From: Caldifarciminota bacterium UBA3079
GTDB lineage: Bacteria; Hydrothermota; Tepidihabitantia; Tepidihabitantales; Tepidihabitantaceae
Reading direction: 5' to 3'
Length of the DNA: 10,609 bases
Assembly: GCA_002366635.1 (NCBI GenBank)
Contig: DFBN01000004.1
Span: forward strand, 1 to 10,609
Part shown: positions 184 through 10,609 of the stretch, in pieces
How positions within the stretch are numbered: position 1 is the stretch's first letter
Layout: each line of letters opens with the position of its first letter
The notes under the pieces: model-generated
The model's input: only the letters and a program-made list of their open reading frames with translations
Told to the model about the DNA's origin: nothing
Databases searched by the model: none
Program-made: the position numbers and the translations under genes

Positions 184-3036
184 TTATTTCAGTCTCACAA
201 ATTTGGTCCTACCCGACCGGACCGGGCTTGCAGAATGCAACCTCTCTGGAACCCAGGTCATCTCTGCGAAATAGACTCCGTTCGGAACCGGATGGCCAGA
301 ATCATCGGTTCCGTCCCAAAGATAGTCGAGAACTTCGCTGCTATGAGCTCTATCTACGAGCGTCCGCACCAGCATTCCTGCTCGGTTATAAACGCAAATA
401 TGGACCCGGCCCTTGCCAGGCAGTCTCCCTCCAAATCGGACAGTACGGGCAAACGGATTTGGACGGACGCGCACGAACGATGTTGCGCGATGGCTAGCCT
501 GACGAGACGGTTCGCTCAGGCCCACTTCCGGTGTGTAGAGGATGGTTACAAAACCCGCATCTCTGCCCACTACCACAATCCGATTCTCTGGCCCGGCGGC
601 AATAGCGTAACCACGGCTACCGCAGATATCCCTCCATATTTCTCTTCCCGATGAATCATACCCGACTGTTGCGGCTAAATAAGTAGCCCTTCCTGTAACA
701 AACACATTACCATCATTCGCGACAGCAACATCATATGCGTAGTCTCTACCGTATTCACTATCGAAGGTTGCGCGCCACAATTCTTCGCCGTCTGCGCTGA
801 ACGCGACTGTCGCGTAATCATAGTCATGACTACCCCTGACGCGCCCGGTGACAAGAACTCGGCCGGTTTCGTCCCCGGTTGCTGAATACGCACGGCAAGT
901 TCTGTCAAAGCTGGCGCGTGCTGCCCACAGGGTTTCGCCTGAAGGACTGAGTTTGGCAGCAAGAAACGCACGAGAACCATACCCTCCCAGGAATACGTTC
1001 CCTGCCGAATCAACGGCCATTCCCTCCGCCCTGAACGAACTTAGGCTGGAATCAGGGTCTTCGCAATGGGCCGTCCATACTACATCTCCGAGGAGGTCGT
1101 ACTTAATTGTAGTCGCTAGAGTGAGGCCGTCATCTTCGTAGCTCCAGCCACTGACATATGTTGCACCAACACCATCGACTGCCACAGCACCGGCATGATC
1201 AGCAGTGTCAGCAGAGCCGTTGTATCTTCTGACCCAGAGTTCCTGACCGGAAGTTGAGTATCTCACCGTAGCGTAGTCCAGGTCTGTGCCAACCCCGTAG
1301 CTCTCTCCGGTCACAGCCACATTGCCAGAACGGTCAACCGCCAAAGCCACTGGCTTGTCGTCATTGTCAGCCGGACCGTTGTAACGATTAGCCCAGAGAC
1401 GGTTGCCCCAGGGGTCATACTTGAGAGTCACATAGTCCAACCCAGTGCCAGCGCCCTCGCTGTATCCGGTCACATACACATTCCCCCAACCGTCCGTTTG
1501 CACAGCCGCCGCAATATCCTCTTCATTCGGAATGTTGCCGTAGGATTGCACCCACAGAAGCTCTCCAGAAGCCGAGTACTTGGCTACCGCTAGGTCTTTG
1601 TACTGGTCGAAGTTCTCCAACCAGCCGGCCGCTATGACGTTGCCGTTACGGTCAAAGGTCACATCCTTGCCTTCCCCGGCCCCAGCAGTGCCCGGTCCAT
1701 TCAGAACTTGCGACCACTGCTCGTTACCGCCGCTGTCATACCGAATCAGCAGCGCATTTTCGTCAAGGTCTCGGTTGTTGTAATAGCCGCCAACGCAGAT
1801 GCCTGAACCCGCCAGGATTAAGGCCAGAGCTCCGCTTTCCAGAGAATCGCGGGCAACCCAGCGCCGCACCCAAACCGATTCGCCAGCGGGGGAGTACTTC
1901 ACTGTGGTCATATCCGACCCTCTCCAATCGCGTTCGCACCAACCCGAAACATAGATATTGCCGGACGGGTCAACCTGCATTCCTGCAAGGCTGTCATTGT
2001 CTCGTGGCCCATGATAGCTTCTGCGCCAGAGTTGAGTCCCGGTCGGTGAGTATTTTACCACCAGATAGGCATTGCTGTCGTTACCTGCCAGAATCACATT
2101 TGCCTGGTTGTCGGTTCCGACCGCGACCGCGCCGTTTTCATCCCCTTGGTCAACAAAGCTTCTTGACCAGAGAGTTTCACCTGAGGGACTATACTTTACC
2201 ACAAGGTAGCCGCTGTTGCGAAAGTCAGGATGGGTGCAGCCAGCAACTACCAGGTTATTCTGCGGGTCCAAGGCAACCGCTACCGCGCTGTCTTCGTTGT
2301 CGCCCGGCCCTCGGAAAGTGCGCGCCCATTGCAGCACTCCATCAAGTGAATACTTCAGCACCTGCATGTCGAAGTCTCCGGCCGCTTCCCAGTTACAAAC
2401 AGTTCCGACTTCGTAGATGTAACCCTGCTGGTCTATGACCGCTGCGAGCCCGAAATCTTCGTTCTCTTGAAAGTCAAACAGCCGTGCCCAAAGCTGTTCC
2501 CCAGAAGGAGAGTACTTAACCAGCGCCATATCTTCGTATCGTTCCCCGGTTTCACCGTAGCCGGCCACATATGCATTGCCTACATCGTCCACCACCACTG
2601 CCGAAGCTTCATCATTTTCCCCCTCGGCATCATAATACTTGACCCAGACCGAATCCCCAGAAGCGCCGTACTTCAGAGTGACAATGTCGAGCCAGCCGCC
2701 CGGCCGTATGGAACTGCCGGTCACGAATGCGTTGCCCCAGTGGTCAACCGCAATGTCTACAGGAATAACGCATCCGTCGCCTTCAGAACGTTGTGACCAG
2801 AGCAGTTCACCGCTCGGTGAGTACTTGGCCGTAATGATGGCAGAGGTGCTCTCGCTGGGCATGTTCTGAATCACGACATAGACATTGCCCTGCTGGTCAG
2901 AAGTCATCGCCCGCACTTGGTCATCGCTGTTGCCGGTACCGGAGAGCCGCCTGACCCAGACCGTATCACGCTGGGCAAATGCACAAGAAATGCACGCTGC
3001 TAGGGTTATTAGCTTAAATCCTGAAAGTCGAATCAT
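184..3036 (-). CDS. secreted SBBP-type beta-propeller repeat protein with C-terminal FlgD-like domain
   Basis: This is a 950-residue exported protein. I chose the ATG at 3036 because GAGGT lies 6 nt upstream and the frame opens directly with a signal peptide (cleavage near AFA|QRD, residue 21). A TTG 15 nt further up is in frame but has no good ribosome binding site. Residues about 22-850 are some 16 tandem repeats of 45-54 residues. Each has the pattern KYSPSGE.LW, a short loop often reading GPxDNxD, then A.A.D..GN.YV.G. This is the SBBP (seven-bladed beta-propeller-type) repeat. Residues about 853-950 resemble the FlgD Ig-like or T9SS-type C-terminal domain, with RPNPF, VYNRAGMLVRTL and WDGTDDSGHPVPNGVYF. 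In known families this tail serves as a sorting or anchoring module. An extracellular or surface-attached scaffold or ligand-binding role is inferred. No catalytic motif is seen. The gene is transcribed divergently from the barrel operon at 3286. Confidence 0.93.
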   Translation of the reverse strand: MIRLSGFKLITLAACISCAFAQRDTVWVRRLSGTGNSDDQVRAMTSDQQGNVYVVIQNMPSESTSAIITAKYSPSGELLWSQRSEGDGCVIPVDIAVDHWGNAFVTGSSIRPGGWLDIVTLKYGASGDSVWVKYYDAEGENDEASAVVVDDVGNAYVAGYGETGERYEDMALVKYSPSGEQLWARLFDFQENEDFGLAAVIDQQGYIYEVGTVCNWEAAGDFDMQVLKYSLDGVLQWARTFRGPGDNEDSAVAVALDPQNNLVVAGCTHPDFRNSGYLVVKYSPSGETLWSRSFVDQGDENGAVAVGTDNQANVILAGNDSNAYLVVKYSPTGTQLWRRSYHGPRDNDSLAGMQVDPSGNIYVSGWCERDWRGSDMTTVKYSPAGESVWVRRWVARDSLESGALALILAGSGICVGGYYNNRDLDENALLIRYDSGGNEQWSQVLNGPGTAGAGEGKDVTFDRNGNVIAAGWLENFDQYKDLAVAKYSASGELLWVQSYGNIPNEEDIAAAVQTDGWGNVYVTGYSEGAGTGLDYVTLKYDPWGNRLWANRYNGPADNDDKPVALAVDRSGNVAVTGESYGVGTDLDYATVRYSTSGQELWVRRYNGSADTADHAGAVAVDGVGATYVSGWSYEDDGLTLATTIKYDLLGDVVWTAHCEDPDSSLSSFRAEGMAVDSAGNVFLGGYGSRAFLAAKLSPSGETLWAARASFDRTCRAYSATGDETGRVLVTGRVRGSHDYDYATVAFSADGEELWRATFDSEYGRDYAYDVAVANDGNVFVTGRATYLAATVGYDSSGREIWRDICGSRGYAIAAGPENRIVVVGRDAGFVTILYTPEVGLSEPSRQASHRATSFVRVRPNPFARTVRFGGRLPGKGRVHICVYNRAGMLVRTLVDRAHSSEVLDYLWDGTDDSGHPVPNGVYFAEMTWVPERLHSASPVRSGRTKFVRLK

Positions 3037-3042
3037 CTTGTT

Positions 3043-3047
3043 ACCTC
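3043..3047 (-). promoter_or_regulatory. ribosome binding site deciding the SBBP gene start
   Basis: GAGGT on the minus strand lies 6 nt before the ATG at 3036. It falls inside the coding stretch that would exist if the upstream TTG at 3051 were used, so it supports the ATG start. Confidence 0.65.
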
Positions 3048-3055
3048 GCAAGACT

Positions 3056-3083
3056 AATATAATCGTATTCCACTGCTTATCAA
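3056..3083 (-). promoter_or_regulatory. sigma70-like promoter for the SBBP protein gene
   Basis: On the minus strand the -35 box TTGATA (3083-3078) is separated by 16 nt from the -10 box TATATT (3061-3056). Transcription would start near 3050, giving a leader of only about 13 nt that still includes the GAGGT ribosome binding site. The boxes each differ from consensus by one base. The short leader is slightly unusual and lowers confidence. Confidence 0.5.
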
Positions 3084-3130
3084 GGCTGGGATTTCAACCT
3101 GGGCATTACCCGTACCGCCGACTTCGTGCC

Positions 3131-3285: not shown

Positions 3286-4113
3286 TTGGTTAGAAATGTT
3301 CTGTTTTTCTCGGCTGTTCTGTTCCTGGTAGTTCCATGCTGGGCGATGTTTGAAGAGAATGGGGTAGGTGTCAGGCCCGAAGGCATGGCGGGCGCTTTCA
3401 CGGCGGTGGCCGATGATGTGAGTGCGGCAAGTTTCAATCCGGCCGGTTTGTTTCAGGTCGGGAAATATGAGGTTCAGGGTTTCTACAAATTGCTTTACGG
3501 CGGTGCCGGCGTTAATCTGCATTCGGTTAGTGCGGCCGGTTGCATGCCTCTGGGCAGGTTTGGCAGTTTCGGGCTGAGTGCGCAGGAGACCGGTTTTGAG
3601 TTGCATTCCGAACGCACCTTGAAGTTTACCCATGGTCTGAGACTCGTCAATAGTATCGGTTTTGGCTATGGTTTGAATGTTTACAATCTCTTTCAGAAGG
3701 GAATCGGCAGCGGTTTTTCATTCGGTCTGGATTTGGGAATGTTTGCAAGGGTGTACCGGGTATGGACCACAGGGTTTTATGTCCACAATATCAATATGCC
3801 CAGGATTGGAACAGGACCCGAAGGCGAGATGCCCAGGTCACTTTGCTTCGGACTCGGATATTCACCGACATCAGGGATTCATTCGGCAATAGATTTGGAA
3901 AAGGAACCGGGGAAGGGGACACAGGTGCGCTGTGGCCAGGAGTTCACGATAGTTCCGGACCATCTGGTTCTCCGTGCCGGTGTCCAGACCGAGCCGGTCA
4001 GTTTTGCCTTTGGCCTGCGGACCGGAACCCGGAGTATCCATATTGATTATGCGCTTAAGACCCATGCCGAGCTGGGTTTGACCCATAATTTCGGGTTATC
4101 GCTCGGGTTCTGA
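3286..4113 (+). CDS. PorV/UPF0164-like outer-membrane beta-barrel protein
   Basis: This 275-residue protein starts at TTG, 5 nt after AGGAGG. Residues 1-20 form a signal peptide (hydrophobic core VLFFSAVLFLVV, cleavage likely after CWA). The mature N-terminus reads GVGVRPEGMAGAFTAVADD then ASFNPAGL (about residues 26-55). This is the hallmark of the PorV/PorQ and FadL-related barrel families, in which an N-terminal segment with an NPAGL motif precedes the strands. The rest alternates polar and hydrophobic residues with many Gly and aromatics and ends in Phe (FGLSLGF), as outer-membrane barrels do. PorV proteins act as shuttles or anchors for secreted cargo in type IX secretion, and FadL proteins import hydrophobic compounds; which applies here is unknown. 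It is the first gene of the operon, and its TGA is followed after 1 nt by the next ATG, suggesting translational coupling. Confidence 0.85.
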   Translation: MVRNVLFFSAVLFLVVPCWAMFEENGVGVRPEGMAGAFTAVADDVSAASFNPAGLFQVGKYEVQGFYKLLYGGAGVNLHSVSAAGCMPLGRFGSFGLSAQETGFELHSERTLKFTHGLRLVNSIGFGYGLNVYNLFQKGIGSGFSFGLDLGMFARVYRVWTTGFYVHNINMPRIGTGPEGEMPRSLCFGLGYSPTSGIHSAIDLEKEPGKGTQVRCGQEFTIVPDHLVLRAGVQTEPVSFAFGLRTGTRSIHIDYALKTHAELGLTHNFGLSLGF

Positions 4114-4114
4114 T

Positions 4115-6520
4115 ATGTTCCAATTCGTGCTTTTCCTGATTGCCGTTTACAGCCCTGCGAATCAGCTTGATATAAACCGTGCGACCCGGGAAGAGATTCG
4201 GCAATTGCCAGTGGATTCGGTTGTTGCAGAACGCATTTATCAGCACCTTTATGAATATGGCAGGTTCAACAGTATCTACGAGCTTTCGGGAATAAAGGGG
4301 GTAGGGCCGGCATTGCTAGAAAGGCTGAAGCCGATGGTTTATGTTTCGTTGCGGCGAGCGGACGAAGACAGGCTGCGCAAGATGCATCTGGTTCAGCGGC
4401 GGCTGGCATCAGAAGAAGGACCGACCCGCGCCGCGGTCGAGGAGTGGCAGGATATGCTATTGACACCGCTCAATATCAATCGGGCAAGTGTGGACGATTT
4501 GGTGATGCTGGACAATGTTTCCCTGGTGGATGCGGTGGCCGTTGCCAAATATCTGAAATCAGGTCGGACAATCCGAAGCCGATATGATTTGGCAAAGCGG
4601 ATTGTCGGGCTTTCCAGTTATGGGTATCGGAATATCCGTGACTTTGTCGCTTACCAGGATATGAAATTCGAGGGTTTCGGTGGTAATTACCGGTTGAATT
4701 ATTTGTCCTGTCCTGCCTGGGAGACCGAGGTCAGCACTGTTGATTTCAGCCAGGCACTTGATGCGCTGGAAAAGGATACGGCAGAGTTCCGCGCAGCCGG
4801 GTTCACAAAGAATGAGATTGAATATATCAGGCATCGTCTTGAAGCTGAAAAAGATTATCTTGAAGAGGGGGGCAGTTCTGGAGATGTGCGCAACCGCTTG
4901 CGGATACGACTGGGTAATCATTTCCGAACCGGTGCGTGGGTCAATCAGAAATTCTTTGAGCCCGGAGCGATAAACGGTCTTAAGGGTTTTGTCAGCGGCC
5001 AGGATTTCGGGCTTTTGCGCCGTGTCTTTCTGGGTGACTACCGGGTTACACTTGGTCAGGGTTTGCTGCTTGACAATACTGCTGAGCTCAGGGCGAGGAC
5101 GCATGAAAGACCCAGAGGTTTGTTCAATGACCTGGATGAGAATCCGGGTTTCGGTTTCAGGGGGGGCGCAGCGGAAATCGGCCTGAGCCGTTTCGGGCTC
5201 GCGGGTTGTATCTCCAGTGCCCGGCGGGATGCAATTCTGAATCCGGACAGCAGTGTGAACTATTATATTATCACTACGCCATGTTATCCGACATTCAAGG
5301 ATGTTTTGAAAGAAACCGATATTGCCGGGAGCGGATACCTTGACCTGTCTGATTTTCTCATGATTCCAGTCGGGACCAGGCTGGGATTCAATGCATTATC
5401 AATCCGGTATGACCGTGATTTCAAACCCGATGCCAGATACCTGGATTTGCCCGGGGACGGCACTGAGCTTGCAGACCCGAATTATACAAGGCTGGACAGC
5501 GGTAAGGCCCGGCTTTTCTATGGTTTTGATTTCCGCACTGTGGTTGAGAATGTTTCTCTTGAAGGTGAGCTGGCACTTAAACCGGATGTCGGCACAAGCT
5601 TTTTGCCCAAAACAGGGACACAGAAGGCGTATCTGGCCAAGGCAAGGGCTCAGTATAATTATCTTTATCTGACCGCATTGTTCCGTCATTATGACATCGG
5701 TTATGATAATCCGTACAATCGTGGTTATTGCGAGCAGTTGCGTTTTGAGGATACGCCTTTTGAAAAGGCGTATCGGTTGATTGACCCGGCATATTCAGGA
5801 TTGCAGGATTTCCCGATGCCCAAGGCCGAGCAAGGTTTTCTTGTTGAGACGCGTTACCAGATTTCGCGCAAGATAACCTTTACCCGGGCATATATTGATG
5901 TATGGCGTAATCTTGCATGGGGGATGAGCAATATCCGGTTTCAGGCAGAAATAGAATATCGGCCGGTTTTCCCTTTGCGAATCCGTTTCAGGCAGAAGCT
6001 GCAAAGCAAAGGTTTGCCCAAGCCTGTCCTGTCCACCAGGTCAAACACATCCGAGTCGAGTATCAGGGTAATGGCAAGTTTGACCAATCACGATTTCCTG
6101 ACAGGGGAAGTGCGCGAAGGCCGGGTTCATTTGATTCCTAATCCGAAATACGGTGACAAAGCGAGTATGTCAGGGAACTTCCTGGCGGTGCAATGGGAAC
6201 ACAATTTCAGCGATGACTTCAATACTGAGCTCGGGGTGGCGACCTGGCTGACCCGGGACATGTCGCAATGGATTCTTGAGGATGTCGGGATTGATTTCCT
6301 TGAAGGCGACGGGCTCAGATGGTATGCAGCATTGAACGACCGGATTTCAGAAAGGCTGCTGATTTACCTGAAATGCCGGCATAAAGTAAGTTGGTTTCCC
6401 CATACCGGGCTGGGTAGTTCTGAAGGTGTTCATTATTCGGAATCGCCTTTCCCGGTGCGGGATTTTGTGAGCAAAGACGATGCATTCGGTATCGCCATCC
6501 AGGTTGATGTGCTATGGTAA
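4115..6520 (+). CDS. exported protein with two ComEA-like helix-hairpin-helix modules and a C-terminal beta-barrel
   Basis: This is an 801-residue protein. Residues 1-15 are a short signal peptide (MFQFVLFLIAVYSPA). Residues 17-76 form a ComEA-type HhH unit: LDINRATREEIRQLP, then ELSGIKGVGPALLERL with an intact second hairpin (GVG). The first hairpin is changed (LPVDS instead of LPGIG). Residues about 118-180 hold a second, more diverged unit beginning LNINRASVDDLVML. In known ComEA-type HhH proteins these hairpins bind the DNA backbone without sequence preference. Residues about 185-801 are rich in aromatic and Gly strands with alternating patterns and end in Trp (IQVDVLW), as expected for an outer-membrane barrel. 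Large HhH-barrel proteins are annotated in Bacteroidetes-like groups, usually without a known role. The gene has no clear Shine-Dalgarno and probably relies on coupling to the upstream stop 1 nt away. A part in surface DNA binding or uptake is inference. Confidence 0.88.
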   Translation: MFQFVLFLIAVYSPANQLDINRATREEIRQLPVDSVVAERIYQHLYEYGRFNSIYELSGIKGVGPALLERLKPMVYVSLRRADEDRLRKMHLVQRRLASEEGPTRAAVEEWQDMLLTPLNINRASVDDLVMLDNVSLVDAVAVAKYLKSGRTIRSRYDLAKRIVGLSSYGYRNIRDFVAYQDMKFEGFGGNYRLNYLSCPAWETEVSTVDFSQALDALEKDTAEFRAAGFTKNEIEYIRHRLEAEKDYLEEGGSSGDVRNRLRIRLGNHFRTGAWVNQKFFEPGAINGLKGFVSGQDFGLLRRVFLGDYRVTLGQGLLLDNTAELRARTHERPRGLFNDLDENPGFGFRGGAAEIGLSRFGLAGCISSARRDAILNPDSSVNYYIITTPCYPTFKDVLKETDIAGSGYLDLSDFLMIPVGTRLGFNALSIRYDRDFKPDARYLDLPGDGTELADPNYTRLDSGKARLFYGFDFRTVVENVSLEGELALKPDVGTSFLPKTGTQKAYLAKARAQYNYLYLTALFRHYDIGYDNPYNRGYCEQLRFEDTPFEKAYRLIDPAYSGLQDFPMPKAEQGFLVETRYQISRKITFTRAYIDVWRNLAWGMSNIRFQAEIEYRPVFPLRIRFRQKLQSKGLPKPVLSTRSNTSESSIRVMASLTNHDFLTGEVREGRVHLIPNPKYGDKASMSGNFLAVQWEHNFSDDFNTELGVATWLTRDMSQWILEDVGIDFLEGDGLRWYAALNDRISERLLIYLKCRHKVSWFPHTGLGSSEGVHYSESPFPVRDFVSKDDAFGIAIQVDVLW

Positions 6521-6524: not shown

Positions 6525-6530
6525 AAAGCG

Positions 6531-7739
6531 ATGAGAAGATTATCATTTGCGTTCCTGATTCTCGTCATCGCCGGTGCGCTGGCAATGGCCGAGATACCGC
6601 TGCGGGCGTACTGGGGAGAGCGGGTGAAGTGGCACAATGCCAGGGATTTGGCATTTGCCGGAATGAACAGATTTGACCCCGGACCTGGCGCAGTATTCTC
6701 CAGCCCGGCACAACTGGGTTTTGTTGACCGTCCCGGGCTTGAACTCAGCTATGGGCTGAAATTCTCTTCTGAGCAGCGGACCAGAACTGTTTATGACCGG
6801 TTCGAGAATACGATTGGCGAAGCGGTTGTAGCTGATAATGCCGGTCTGTCCGGGATTGTTGGGCCTCTGGCCGGAGTGTTTCCGCTTTTCGGAAAGGGAG
6901 CGGTCGCAGCCGGCATTGGGCCGGTGCTCGATTTCTCATACCGGTATTACAAGGAGTTCCGGGATGATTTCTATAATGTCATCGGCGAAGACCGGGTTGA
7001 GCAGACCGGCACTGTTTTCAATGCCGGGCTCGGGTTCGGGTTCCGGCCTTTGAGCCGGCTGAGTCTTGGAGCAAGCGGCGGGTATATGTTCGGTTCAAGA
7101 GAGCTCGAGTCCTGGCAGATTCGAATACCAGATACGAGCTATGAGAGCGAGTTCGGCAAGCCGGCCGGAGTCACTTATGCGGTGGGTATCGCCGGTCAGC
7201 CGATTGACCGGCTTGACCTGGAGTTCGGCTTCACTGGGCCAGTCAAGCTGTCCGGCTGGTATACGCCGTCTGCTGCTCCGCCTGAATTTATTGGCTGCGA
7301 GCAGCATTATCCGTGGCGCGCGGACCTGAATGTTTCATACCAGGTGCCAGGTCCGCTGCCGTCCCGGGTGATGCTCGAAGCCGAGTACCAGCCACGGGTT
7401 AGCGTGGTTACCGGGTGGGGACTCTGGGGTAAGCACCCCGTGACTGAAACCGCCAGCATCCTGAGCGTTCGTGCCGGGGTCGAGCATACAATGCTGAATT
7501 TCTTGAAGCTGCGCTATGGATTCGGTGTTGAGCCGCTACCTTTTGACCCTTCGATTCAACTGGCCGAGGTCGGAGCCGGTGTCGGGTTTGATGCCGGATT
7601 CGGCCGGATTGATATTGGCGGGATGTTCTTCCGGGATGTTATCGGGCCAAGCTATTTCTACGGCTCATTGACCCCAAAAGACCAGACAGTATATGAGACC
7701 AGCGCGGTTTTCGCAGTTACGGTCGAGCATGGGTTCTAA
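6531..7739 (+). CDS. second PorV/FadL-like outer-membrane beta-barrel protein
   Basis: This is a 402-residue exported protein. The start at 6531 is set by AAGGAG 6 nt upstream and by a signal peptide at residues 1-20 (MRRLSFAFLILVIAGALAMA, then EIPLRAYW). After it come DLAFAGMNRFDPGPGAVFSSPAQLGF, a variant of the NPA-type motif found at the N-terminus of FadL/OMPP1 and PorV barrels, and then Gly- and aromatic-rich alternating strands up to a terminal Phe (FAVTVEHGF). Several stretches such as FNAGLGFGFRPLSRLSLGASGGYMFG read as barrel hairpins. Family-level assignment (outer-membrane barrel) is firm; subfamily and substrate are not. The last 11 bp overlap the start of the nucleotidase-like gene, so the two are likely translated together. 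Confidence 0.82.
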   Translation: MRRLSFAFLILVIAGALAMAEIPLRAYWGERVKWHNARDLAFAGMNRFDPGPGAVFSSPAQLGFVDRPGLELSYGLKFSSEQRTRTVYDRFENTIGEAVVADNAGLSGIVGPLAGVFPLFGKGAVAAGIGPVLDFSYRYYKEFRDDFYNVIGEDRVEQTGTVFNAGLGFGFRPLSRLSLGASGGYMFGSRELESWQIRIPDTSYESEFGKPAGVTYAVGIAGQPIDRLDLEFGFTGPVKLSGWYTPSAAPPEFIGCEQHYPWRADLNVSYQVPGPLPSRVMLEAEYQPRVSVVTGWGLWGKHPVTETASILSVRAGVEHTMLNFLKLRYGFGVEPLPFDPSIQLAEVGAGVGFDAGFGRIDIGGMFFRDVIGPSYFYGSLTPKDQTVYETSAVFAVTVEHGF

Positions 7740-9195
7740 GCATATTACCTGGTTGTTCTTGGGTTTGGTCCTGGGCTGCGTGATTGCCCGGGCCCGGGTC
7801 CAGCATTTATATATTGTCCATACCAACGATATTCAGGGTGCATTGCTGCCAAATAAGGCGTTCTGGATGAACCGGGATTTTCCGCCGCCGCTGGCAAATG
7901 CACCCGGTGCATTGACTGTAATCAGGGAATTGAGGGCCGAAGCAGCACAGAAAGGTTATGGTTTTCTGTTGCTGGATGCAGGCGATGCATTCAGGGGCAA
8001 GACGCCTGGCGAGTTGAGCAGCAGCCAGGCTGTCGTGGATTATTTTAACCGGGCCGGGTATGATGCGATTGAACTCGGGCAATATGATTGTCTGTCCGAT
8101 ACCAATTCCGGCATGCCGTGGATATGTTCTAATTTGCAGATTGCCGGCAGGAATATCAGGCCGAATCGGTTGTTTGAGCAAAGAGGTATTAAAATCGGCA
8201 TCTTCGGGCTGATAACAAAATATGCCAAAAGCGCAATTAAGGATAAGGATTATGATGCTGTTGCCAGTGACCAAATCGCAAAGCTGCGCAGGCAAGGTGC
8301 AGATATTATTGTCGGGTTGACCAGTATCGGATACAGAAACGACAAGCGACTGGCCGATGATGTGGCTGGTGTTGATATTATTATTGGTGGTTATAGCCGG
8401 ACCGGCGTCGAGCCGCCTTATGAATCGCCAAAGAACCATACGATTGTCTGCCAGGCATATAGCAGATTGAGTGCGATAGGTTTTCTTGATTTGGTTGTGG
8501 ATACCGATACCCGGCATATTATCGGTTATGAGGGGCATTTAATAAACCTGTATGGAGAAGAGATTCCCAAGGACCCGGCATACATGCGGTACCTTGATTC
8601 ACTTAAGGCAAAGAAGGAAAAGGGCTTTGATAAAGTCATCGGCAAAAGCGTGCGAGAATTGGTGCGTTGCGAAGACAGGGAATCACCGGTTGGAAATCTG
8701 GTCACCGATGCGATGCGGGAATTCACCGGTGCGGATATTGCTTTGCACAATTCAGACGGAATCACTGCGGATATTCCTTGTGGGGAGATTACTTACCGTG
8801 ATATTTACAATCTGGCTCGTTTCGGCAATACAGTCGTCACCGGCGAATACGCTGGCCGTCAGGTTCGGGAAATGCTTGAAGTTTCAGTAAGCAGTAATCG
8901 AATACTCCAGGTTTCCGGGCTGAAGATGGGTTATGCAAAGAAGAGGCCTTTGGGCAGCCGGGTGCTTTCGGTTGTGGTCGGGGGTGAAGCGCTTGAGCCG
9001 GACCGGTTGTATAAAGTTTGTACCAATTCATATCTTGCCACCGGGAAAAGTGGTTTCGGTGTTTTCCAGACCGGCAAGCATATCAGTGACAGCGGTGTGC
9101 TCCTGCGCGATGTTGTTGCCGATTATATCCGCCGCAATTCACCGGTTAATGCCCGCATCCAGGGCCGTATCGTTTTGCAGGATAGTAGGCCCTGA
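7729..9195 (+). CDS. UshA/5'-nucleotidase family protein with most active-site residues replaced (probable pseudoenzyme)
   Basis: The 488-residue length and two-domain layout match the secreted 5'-nucleotidase family. ATG 7729 is preferred because a signal segment follows at once (WLFLGLVLGCVIARA). The N-terminal metallophosphatase-like domain spans about residues 26-265, and the C-terminal 5_nucleotid_C domain about 303-484 (SPVGNLVTDAMREF, ADIALHN, GEITYRDIYNLARFGNT, ILQVSGLKMGY). The core motifs are altered. TND.HG reads TNDIQG (His to Gln36). GNHE reads GQYD (Asn to Gln118, His to Tyr119). The LTH.G motif reads LTSIG (Ser199). GGHSHT reads GGYSRT (Tyr222, Arg224). Only Asp34 and Asp86 of the metal ligands remain. 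In the C-domain, GGIR reads DGIT and GGDGF reads GKSGF. Loss of hydrolysis is therefore expected, while the fold and perhaps ligand binding persist. A lipoprotein signal (VLGC) is possible but weak. It ends the operon. Confidence 0.9.
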   Translation: MGSKHITWLFLGLVLGCVIARARVQHLYIVHTNDIQGALLPNKAFWMNRDFPPPLANAPGALTVIRELRAEAAQKGYGFLLLDAGDAFRGKTPGELSSSQAVVDYFNRAGYDAIELGQYDCLSDTNSGMPWICSNLQIAGRNIRPNRLFEQRGIKIGIFGLITKYAKSAIKDKDYDAVASDQIAKLRRQGADIIVGLTSIGYRNDKRLADDVAGVDIIIGGYSRTGVEPPYESPKNHTIVCQAYSRLSAIGFLDLVVDTDTRHIIGYEGHLINLYGEEIPKDPAYMRYLDSLKAKKEKGFDKVIGKSVRELVRCEDRESPVGNLVTDAMREFTGADIALHNSDGITADIPCGEITYRDIYNLARFGNTVVTGEYAGRQVREMLEVSVSSNRILQVSGLKMGYAKKRPLGSRVLSVVVGGEALEPDRLYKVCTNSYLATGKSGFGVFQTGKHISDSGVLLRDVVADYIRRNSPVNARIQGRIVLQDSRP

Positions 9196-9207: not shown

Positions 9208-10506
9208 TCAGTGTGACCAGGTGGGAGAAAAAGCGCCTTTGGTCCGGGTTATGCATTTCTGATGGGCACCGTTCCAGTCCATCGTATAAATCTCATAGTG
9301 GCCGCTCCGGTTTGAAGAAAAGGCGATGTGCAGGCCATCCGGAGACCAGATTGGGTCTTCGTTGCTGCCACGGCTGGTGAGTCTCAGATAGGTATCACCC
9401 GTTATATTCGTGGCGCAGACCTGATTCGAGCCATCTGGTTGGCGTTGGACAAATGCGACCATGTCACCGCGTGGAGACCAGGCAGGCGAAGTGTTATAGC
9501 TTCCTTCAAATGTCAGGCGGTGCAGGTCAATCCCATCGGCATTCATAATATAGACCTGTGGTGTTCCGGTCCGGTCAGACACGAAGGCTAGTTGTCTGCC
9601 CGATGGAGACCAAGTCGGGGATATGTCAATTGCATGGCTTGTGGTCAGCCGGCTGAGGTTGTGTCCTTTCGGGTCCATCAAATAGATGTCGGATTGCCCT
9701 CTGAAACTCAAAGATACCGCAATCGTCTTATTGTCCGGTGACCAGGCCGGGGTCGTATTCAATCCTGGCCGTTCACTCAAGGTTTTTCTCTTGCGGGTTT
9801 GGATATCGAGTGTGTATATGTTCAGCGAATGCTTTCCATAAGCGCAATACGCCAGTTTGTTTCCGTCGGGAGAGAAATCCGGGAAGAGTTTTACACCACC
9901 AGAGTTTGTAATAGAAACAAGAGCTGCACCATCGTAGTCTAGGAGAGCTAATTCCTTGCGGCCGTTTCCCAGGCTGCGGGAGAAAGCGATACGGGTGCGG
10001 CTGACACCCTGTTCTCCGGTAAGCAGTTTTATGACATCATCGGCAATTTCGTGTGCAAGCCGGCGCCATTGTTTTCTGAACCTGTAGGGCTTGGTTGCGA
10101 TACGCCGGCATGTGAGAAGGTCATAAAGCCAGATTTGGAGAATGGGTCCGGAACGCTTCCTCGTGAGGTCTCCGCATATGAGCACTTCGGCCCCGGTGGA
10201 GCCCCAGGCTTTCAGGTCCACTTTGTGCATGGCGGTTTCAAATCCGAAGGCCGCGCCGGATTCTGGTTGCTGGAATGTGAAATACAAAGAGAAGCGCAAG
10301 TCTGCTTCGAATACCTGTTGGATTGACTGAAGGATATTGATAGTATCTTTTGGGAATCCTTTCTGGGCTGAGAATTCGGCAATCACCAGGTTGAGTCTTT
10401 GCCGGCCACTGGTTGCGGTTATCCTGAGCCAGAGCTCATCCTGTTGGTTTTGGCCAGATACCAGTGAAATACCCAAGAGTGCCAGCCAGCATATGACTCT
10501 CTTCAT
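9208..10506 (-). CDS. tolB: TolB, periplasmic beta-propeller protein of the Tol-Pal system
   Basis: The protein has 432 residues from the ATG at 10506, the usual TolB length. Residues 1-18 are a signal peptide (MKRVICWLALLGISLVSG). Residues about 25-165 are the TolB N-terminal domain (LNLVIAEF near 38-45, FEADLRFSLYF, GAEVLICGDL, HEIADDVIKLLTGEQG). Residues about 170-432 form the propeller, with five full PxWSPDG-type motifs (FPDFSPDG 208, PAWSPDN 253, PTWSPSG 297, PAWSPRG 341, PIWSPDG 385) and a closing SPTWSH at the C-terminus. TolB works with Pal and the TolQRA energy complex to keep the outer membrane tight during division. No pal gene lies downstream here; the neighbouring gene is convergent. 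A longer frame up to 10584 exists, but it would place the signal peptide internally and would contain the promoter, so the shorter start is favoured. No strong Shine-Dalgarno precedes this ATG. Confidence 0.93.
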   Translation of the reverse strand: MKRVICWLALLGISLVSGQNQQDELWLRITATSGRQRLNLVIAEFSAQKGFPKDTINILQSIQQVFEADLRFSLYFTFQQPESGAAFGFETAMHKVDLKAWGSTGAEVLICGDLTRKRSGPILQIWLYDLLTCRRIATKPYRFRKQWRRLAHEIADDVIKLLTGEQGVSRTRIAFSRSLGNGRKELALLDYDGAALVSITNSGGVKLFPDFSPDGNKLAYCAYGKHSLNIYTLDIQTRKRKTLSERPGLNTTPAWSPDNKTIAVSLSFRGQSDIYLMDPKGHNLSRLTTSHAIDISPTWSPSGRQLAFVSDRTGTPQVYIMNADGIDLHRLTFEGSYNTSPAWSPRGDMVAFVQRQPDGSNQVCATNITGDTYLRLTSRGSNEDPIWSPDGLHIAFSSNRSGHYEIYTMDWNGAHQKCITRTKGAFSPTWSH

Positions 10507-10549
10507 TTCGCTTGTGACAGAGAAAGAATGTATGCGGGCATTGGAGCCG

Positions 10550-10577
10550 ATTATAAAGACTACATGGTTCGGGTCAA
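10550..10577 (-). promoter_or_regulatory. strong sigma70-like promoter for tolB
   Basis: On the minus strand TTGACC (10577-10572) is followed after 16 nt by a perfect TATAAT (10555-10550). Transcription would begin near 10543, giving a leader of about 37 nt before the tolB ATG at 10506. The promoter lies inside the in-frame extension of the tolB frame, which argues that the extension is not coding. Confidence 0.65.
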
Positions 10578-10609
10578 GATGCATTTTCCCTCGAGCAATG
10601 CCTTGATGC

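What the first reader, a model, noticed from the sequence alone, without database searches (positions are those of the whole stretch)
7729..9195. 5'-nucleotidase-fold protein that has lost nearly all metal and catalytic residues
The architecture is a complete UshA-type protein, with signal segment, metallophosphatase domain and 5_nucleotid_C domain. Yet the canonical motifs are changed at almost every key site: DxHG to DIQG, GNHE to GQYD, LTHxG to LTSIG, GGHSHT to GGYSRT, GGIR to DGIT and GGDGF to GKSGF. The two Asp ligands (34, 86) and the structural motifs around them are kept, and the frame is intact. Random decay would not erase active-site residues while sparing the fold, so a conserved non-enzymatic role such as nucleotide or sugar-nucleotide binding, or a structural role, is likely.
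Basis: partly seen in the sequence, partly recalled or inferred. Interest (0 to 1): 0.75.

Follow-up and report, generated by a model that had tools for sequence, protein, structure and literature searches.

The report
Dead nucleotidase kept as envelope protein
A protein with the shape of a phosphate-clipping enzyme has lost the residues that hold its two metals, yet it stays intact beside outer-membrane genes in an uncultured bacterium, so it has probably become a binding or scaffold protein.

Summary

The window's substitutions do not define a clade. In 12 of 14 relatives' loci with the same operon the ortholog is canonical. The sister group (12 database proteins) is also altered, but differently: Arg replaces one metal His in all 12. 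A second clade in the class lost the centre independently, with a uniform pattern. A ComEA-HHH-fused paralog, also without the centre, occurs in 18 of 18 genomes of the bacterial family.

Neutral evolution over the whole window branch is rejected (omega about 0.05), though dS is saturated and the branch is the longest in its group. The operon is PorV-like / HHH protein / outer-membrane protein / nucleotidase.

Best reading: a pseudoenzyme retained by selection, probably a nucleoside-binding or structural partner of an outer-membrane nucleic-acid-handling complex. The loss of the catalytic centre is well supported; inactivity and role are inference.

The parts
7729..9195 (+). pseudo-5'-nucleotidase CDS (488 aa): hydrophobic N-terminal segment, metallophosphatase-fold domain, 5_nucleotid_C domain
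7828..7830 (+). codon D34 (UshA D41), retained metal-site Asp
   Evidence: role of the UshA residue recalled
7834..7836 (+). codon Q36 (UshA H43), metal ligand replaced
7984..7986 (+). codon D86 (UshA D84), retained bridging Asp
   Evidence: role recalled
8080..8085 (+). codons Q118-Y119 (UshA N116-H117), metal Asn and catalytic His replaced
8323..8325 (+). codon S199 (UshA H217), metal His replaced
8392..8394 (+). codon Y222 (UshA H252), metal His replaced; Arg in all 12 sister database proteins
8398..8400 (+). codon R224 (UshA Q254; His in 75 of 75 canonical relatives), proposed to pair with D34/D86 in place of a metal
   Evidence: pairing is inference
8764..8766 (+). codon T346 (UshA R410), substrate Arg replaced
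8821..8823 (+). codon F365 (UshA F429), base-stacking aromatic kept
   Evidence: role recalled
9031..9033 (+). codon Y435 (UshA F498), base-stacking aromatic kept
   Evidence: role recalled
6528..7739 (+). outer-membrane-protein-like gene (403 aa, ends in Phe); its end overlaps the start of the nucleotidase gene by 11 bases; similar gene adjacent in 29 of 30 relatives' loci
4115..6520 (+). ComEA-type HHH domain(s) followed by a long region ending in Trp, read as an outer-membrane barrel (801 aa)
   Evidence: barrel is inference, not predicted here
3286..4113 (+). PorV/PorQ-like protein (275 aa; profile match below cut-off), first gene of the run
9208..10584 (-). TolB, convergent, 12 bases after the nucleotidase stop; the DHH/RecJ-like and methyltransferase genes found here in several relatives are missing

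Best explanation
A periplasmic pseudoenzyme descended from an operon-encoded 5'-nucleotidase-family enzyme. Shown by sequence: the two-metal centre is gone, the frame is kept, the fold is predicted intact, and the branch as a whole evolved under purifying selection. Inferred: D34 and D86 form a salt-bridge network with R224 where the metals used to sit. The aromatic pair that stacks the base (F365, Y435) and N367 remain, so the cleft may still bind a nucleoside or an end of a nucleic acid without cutting phosphate. The protein works as a binding or structural partner of the proteins encoded just upstream (PorV-like, ComEA-HHH protein, outer-membrane-like protein), in nucleotide or DNA handling at the envelope.
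Against: The window has the longest terminal branch of its group (0.57-0.59; medians of end branches 0.15-0.18). It has three short deletions (8, 5, 8 residues) and lacks the two genes that follow the nucleotidase in several relatives. The dS of the branch is about 3, so recent relaxation would be hidden. The window keeps fewer conserved positions outside the centre (0.85) than canonical members (median 0.987). Nothing measures binding, location or partners. No substitution set is shared with the sister group, and only 2 of 12 residues specific to the sister clade are shared by the window. Six of 18 family genomes have no close copy of this gene. The E-type clade has the OMP neighbour but not the HHH gene beside it, so the HHH link does not cover the whole family.
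Confidence: 0.55

Rival explanations
1. A remnant in slow decay: the operon's enzyme lost its use in this small genome, and the gene is on its way out.
For: Long branch; three small deletions; downstream DHH/RecJ-like gene present only as a 35% homolog elsewhere and methyltransferase not found in the 93%-complete genome; six of 18 family genomes lack a close copy; in G003 the flanking genes are truncated.
Against: Neutral evolution over the whole branch rejected; 488 codons open; the closest database protein (P0002, representative of a cluster of 7 member sequences that may include the window's own copy) differs by 4 conservative changes, none at the eight sites; sister-clade proteins are altered yet intact in several genomes.
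Confidence: 0.25
2. Still an enzyme, with a rebuilt site (one metal, or metal-free chemistry) and another substrate.
For: Both Asp residues kept; the parallel E-type clade keeps GNHD and has Glu at UshA-43, so other chemistries in this fold are conceivable.
Against: Every metal His, the metal Asn, the catalytic His and the remaining substrate Arg (T346) are changed in the window.
Confidence: 0.12
3. Purely structural scaffold at the outer membrane/peptidoglycan, without any ligand in the old cleft. This overlaps with the best explanation (both are pseudoenzymes), so the odds are not exclusive.
For: One sister-clade member (P0007) carries an OmpA-family domain inside the metallophosphatase domain; conserved neighbours look like outer-membrane proteins.
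Against: Stacking aromatics F365/Y435 and N367 are kept; P0007 is a single protein whose contig was not seen and could be a chimera.
Confidence: 0.25

Closest known systems
UshA / CD73 / T. thermophilus 5'-nucleotidase (PF00149 + PF02872)
   Same: Two-domain fold over nearly the full length, PF02872 hit, base-stacking aromatics
   Different: Metal and catalytic residues lost (2 of 8 kept), substrate Arg lost, 62 residues shorter than the UshA precursor
WOR-3 canonical operon orthologs (e.g. P0006; G005 locus L033)
   Same: Same operon position, 57-60% identity
   Different: Those keep DxH, GNHD, LTHxG, GGHSH and GIR
Sister 'GGRS' clade (P0003, P0007, P0021, P0037, P0038, P0041, P0044, P0059, P0066, P0068, P0097, P0111)
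   Same: Sister in the tree, metal centre altered
   Different: Arg at UshA-252 in all 12, His at UshA-217 kept in all 12; the window has Tyr and Ser there and Arg at UshA-254
ComEA-HHH-fused nucleotidase-like paralog (P0130-P0209; own copy L064:6831-7898 / P0131)
   Same: Nucleotidase-family profile matches, centre lost, same genomes
   Different: C-terminal ComEA HHH domain; DLH and the UshA-217 His mostly kept; GNH and GHSH lost; 23-29% identical to the window protein
UshA-like (seleno)protein NF041198 and SoxB TIGR04486
   Same: Profile similarity
   Different: Scores far below curated cut-offs (48.8 of 275; 112 of 550 bits)

Membership tests
5'-nucleotidase family, fold level | 5_nucleotid_C domain over cut-off | tested here: met
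   PF02872 137.6 bits against cut-off 23.6
5'-nucleotidase family, fold level | Metallophosphatase N-terminal domain | tested here: met
   Model and structure matches cover residues 25-487; note PF00149 itself gives no hit at E<=1e-3
Active 5'-nucleotidase (UshA/CD73) | Two-metal ligand set and catalytic His | tested here: not met
   2 of 8 positions kept
Active 5'-nucleotidase (UshA/CD73) | Catalytic dyad Asp (UshA D120) | tested here: not met
   L122; but only 56 of 75 canonical relatives have Asp in this column, so it is a weak marker
Active 5'-nucleotidase (UshA/CD73) | Substrate-phosphate Arg residues | tested here: not met
   UshA R410 column is T346; the R375 column is a gap and the R379 column is not Arg in the window and in all 75 canonical relatives
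Active 5'-nucleotidase (UshA/CD73) | Base-stacking aromatic pair | tested here: met
   F365 and Y435; role recalled
Active 5'-nucleotidase (UshA/CD73) | Secretion signal | tested here: inconclusive
   Hydrophobic N-terminal helix in the model; no signal predictor available
Active 5'-nucleotidase (UshA/CD73) | Phosphohydrolase activity | not testable with these tools
   needs an assay
Sister GGRS clade | Arg at UshA-252 with His at UshA-217 | tested here: not met
   Y222 and S199; but sister in the tree, 100/98
Pseudoenzyme retained by selection | Catalytic residues lost, coding sequence under purifying selection | tested here: met
   caveat of saturated dS
Pseudoenzyme retained by selection | Demonstrated non-catalytic function | not testable with these tools
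   needs binding or knock-out data
UshA-like (seleno)protein NF041198 | Score over curated cut-off | tested here: not met
   48.8 of 275 bits
SoxB TIGR04486 | Score over curated cut-off | tested here: not met
   112 of 550 bits

The most novel reading that the evidence does not exclude
This WOR-3 family handles DNA or nucleotides at its envelope with a complex in which 5'-nucleotidase folds have been turned, more than once, into non-catalytic nucleic-acid- or nucleoside-binding subunits: the window protein beside a ComEA-HHH outer-membrane protein, and a second pseudo-nucleotidase fused directly to a ComEA HHH domain. It would be a DNA-uptake or DNA-scavenging apparatus of a kind that the paper searches made here did not turn up.
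Probability: 0.2. Interest if true: 0.75.

Novelty: new variant of a known kind. Interest (0 to 1): 0.5.

Why it matters
Repeated loss of one of the best studied two-metal centres inside one phylum-level lineage, in proteins that stay intact in conserved gene neighbourhoods, gives a natural series (canonical, GGRS, E-type, HHH-fused, window) in which the use of an enzyme fold as a binding module can be tested. It also warns that automatic names such as 'bifunctional UDP-sugar hydrolase/5'-nucleotidase', given to several proteins of this family including the sister-clade member P0066, can be wrong about function. The HHH link suggests an uncharacterised nucleic-acid-handling system in uncultured bacteria.

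Tried and rejected
Rejected: 'the window's substitutions define a clade' (no other row has the set). Rejected: 'GGDGF to GKSGF is a window-specific loss of the Asp' (an acid one column later, present in 54 of 75 canonical rows, is missing in the window). Rejected: window and its same-genus genome G001 as sisters in the gene tree (p-AU 0.001), although the neighbouring HHH and OMP genes of G001 are the closest by identity; not resolved, horizontal replacement is possible. Thought unlikely: a frameshift or sequencing artefact, because the frame is open and P0002 differs by only 4 conservative changes, though P0002's cluster may include the window's own copy.

Led nowhere: the first genome-contig scan with the single protein (no relative). 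The second scan gave 24 loci, of which 5 were WOR-3 records (L067-L071); the other 19 were not analysed. Paper searches: HHH/ComEA/Bacteroidetes terms (2 papers, one opened); HHH/beta-barrel/competence terms (1, the same paper); 'pseudoenzyme'+'metallophosphatase'+'nucleotidase' (0); 'WOR-3'+'nucleotidase' (0); a five-term 'inactive nucleotidase family' search (0); a VPS29 search with 'metallophosphoesterase' (0); a second VPS29 search (3 listed, none opened); UshA+ComEA (37 hold both, 10 listed, one opened); 'pseudoenzyme'+'nucleotidase' (1 listed, not opened, on another enzyme by its title). None describes this family as far as seen. A structure prediction for the HHH protein could not be run. 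Four distant loci fetched (L062, L063, L065, L066) hold only a distant nucleotidase hit and none of the neighbours; they, and L064 (the own-genome paralog), were left out of the neighbour counts.

Limits: the codon model was my own script (10 taxa, 460 ungapped codons), not an established package. In one search loci on the minus strand were read on the wrong strand; one search replaced it. The 157 rows include 29 locus rows, several of which repeat database rows; counts 'of 128' use database rows only (P0001-P0129 without P0002). The careful tree used 33 of these (the window, 10 of 12 GGRS rows, the two partial ones left out, and 22 of 75 canonical rows); the quick tree used 96 (8 of 40 E-type rows). 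The database listings show only the best 120 hits.

Full report

The host. The window lies on contig C59 of a 1.58 Mb, 93%-complete genome with one PF02872 match. The same-genus genome G001 has a 7,634-base contig with the match at the same place (1626-3113) as JAUWNN010000153.1, titled candidate division WOR-3 bacterium CSMAG_2425; several homologs carry WOR-3 names.

The active site. Roles of UshA residues are recalled; positions are. At UshA 41, 43, 84, 116, 117, 217, 252 and 254 the window has D, Q, D, Q, Y, S, Y, R. Of 128 database rows (P0001 to P0129 without P0002), 75 are canonical: D, H, D, N, H, H, H, H wherever the column is filled. Forty are an 'E' type: D, E, D, N, H, G, H, A/S wherever filled. 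Twelve are a 'GGRS' type: Arg at 252 in all 12, His at 217 in all 12, 254 His in 7 and Asn in 5, 116 and 117 variable. The dyad Asp column (UshA 120) is Leu in the window, but only 56 of 75 canonical rows have Asp there. The substrate Arg (UshA 410) is Arg in 74 of 75 canonical rows, 9 of 12 GGRS rows, and Thr in the window. The base-stacking aromatics (UshA 429, 498) remain as F365 and Y435, and N431 as N367.

Relationship. With the six variable motif columns removed, the 33-row careful tree puts the window as sister to 10 GGRS rows (100/98), and those rows as one clade (100/98). The 96-row quick tree gives the 12 GGRS rows plus window as one group (SH-aLRT 98) and the E type as a separate group (99) (8 of 40 E rows put in). 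Placing the window with P0003 (G001) or with the six nearest canonical rows is rejected (p-AU 0.001 and 0.006). The window shares 2 of 12 residues specific to the GGRS clade, so its state is best read as a separate path of loss from a common, possibly already weakened, ancestor. Its branch is the longest of the group (0.57-0.59).

Selection. In a 10-taxon codon model over 460 codons, the window branch has omega 0.05, background 0.055; fixing omega at 1 costs 15.2 log units (2dlnL 30.3). By domain: N 0.023 (2dlnL 23.9), C 0.076 (9.2); neither differs significantly from background. dS on the branch is about 3, so the values are rough and late relaxation cannot be excluded. Conserved positions outside the centre and substrate sites are kept at 61 of 71, against 2 of 8 in the centre (p 6e-4). 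Counted the same way, sister proteins keep 82-93% of outside positions and the window 85%; canonical ones keep a median of 98.7%, so the whole altered group is looser.

Neighbourhood. Upstream lie a PorV-like gene, an 801-aa protein with ComEA-type HHH domains and a 403-aa outer-membrane-like gene. All three end in an aromatic residue, as outer-membrane barrels do (recalled). A relative of the 403-aa gene adjoins the nucleotidase in 29 of 30 close loci (the exception begins inside the nucleotidase gene), and the HHH protein, whole or in part, is found with it in 14 of 30. Of those 14 loci, 12 have a canonical nucleotidase and 2 a GGRS one; of all 30, 12 are canonical, 14 E-type and 4 GGRS. In genomes G000-G030 (31), a strong nucleotidase hit (E<=1e-100) and an HHH-protein hit (E<=1e-20) co-occur in 15, nucleotidase alone in 2 (G007, G011, fragmented genomes), HHH alone in 0, neither in 14. 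A DHH/RecJ-like gene and a PUA/methyltransferase gene follow in G001, G010, G007 and G011, and the start of the DHH gene in G003; in the window TolB follows after 12 bases. The genome has only a 35% RecJ-like homolog elsewhere and no methyltransferase hit. In E-type locus L046 an Exo_endo_phos protein with a below-cut-off Por-type tail follows.

A second pseudo-nucleotidase. The genome's only other relative at E<=0.001 (L064:6831-7898, cut by the contig end) belongs to a roughly 560-aa family with a C-terminal ComEA HHH domain. P0131 is 99.7% identical to it over 356 aa and is listed at 558 aa with HHH domains. In 81 rows (80 database proteins plus the cut own copy) UshA-116 is Ala or Pro in all, and neither 117 nor 252 is His in any; the alignment around 252 is loose. 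It is found in 18 of 18 genomes of this family and 0 of 47 others of the class at E<=1e-30. A ComEC-family hit is present in the genome, which says little, since 10 of 14 control genomes have one.

Interpretation. Shown by sequence: loss of the centre, open frame, predicted intact fold, purifying selection over the branch, repeated losses in the class, conserved neighbours. Inferred: no activity, a salt-bridge centre, nucleoside binding, partnership with outer-membrane proteins. For background, an HHH protein is reported as needed for transformation in Riemerella (PMC8459023; passages read), and ComEA/ComEC/EndA are reported to help use DNA as nutrient in Deinococcus (PMC11784314; passages read). 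In the passages seen, neither paper describes the proteins studied here. The decay rival keeps real weight because of the long branch, the deletions and the missing downstream genes.

Noticed in passing
L064:6831-7898; L092:470-2152; P0130-P0209: Nucleotidase-like protein fused to a ComEA HHH domain with the GNH and GHSH motifs lost; 18 of 18 family genomes, 0 of 47 other class genomes.
   Followed up: partly
P0007: GGRS-clade protein with an OmpA-family domain inside its metallophosphatase domain; contig not seen, chimera not excluded.
   Followed up: partly
L016, L017, L019-L028, L030, L031; P0074 and similar: E-type clade with NDIEG/LTGIG/GSHS(A,S) and GNHD kept: a uniform alternative centre, possibly with other chemistry; OMP neighbour kept, HHH protein not beside it.
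   Followed up: partly
L046:8453-9739: Exo_endo_phos protein with a Por-type secretion tail (below its cut-off) directly after the E-type nucleotidase.
   Followed up: no
L039 (G003): OMP and nucleotidase lie between the last 137 residues of an HHH protein and the first 122 of a DHH protein, as if moved or left over as a block.
   Followed up: no
184-3036 (-): Large SBBP/delta-60 beta-propeller protein with a FlgD-like C-terminal domain; LipL53-like by profile but below that cut-off.
   Followed up: no
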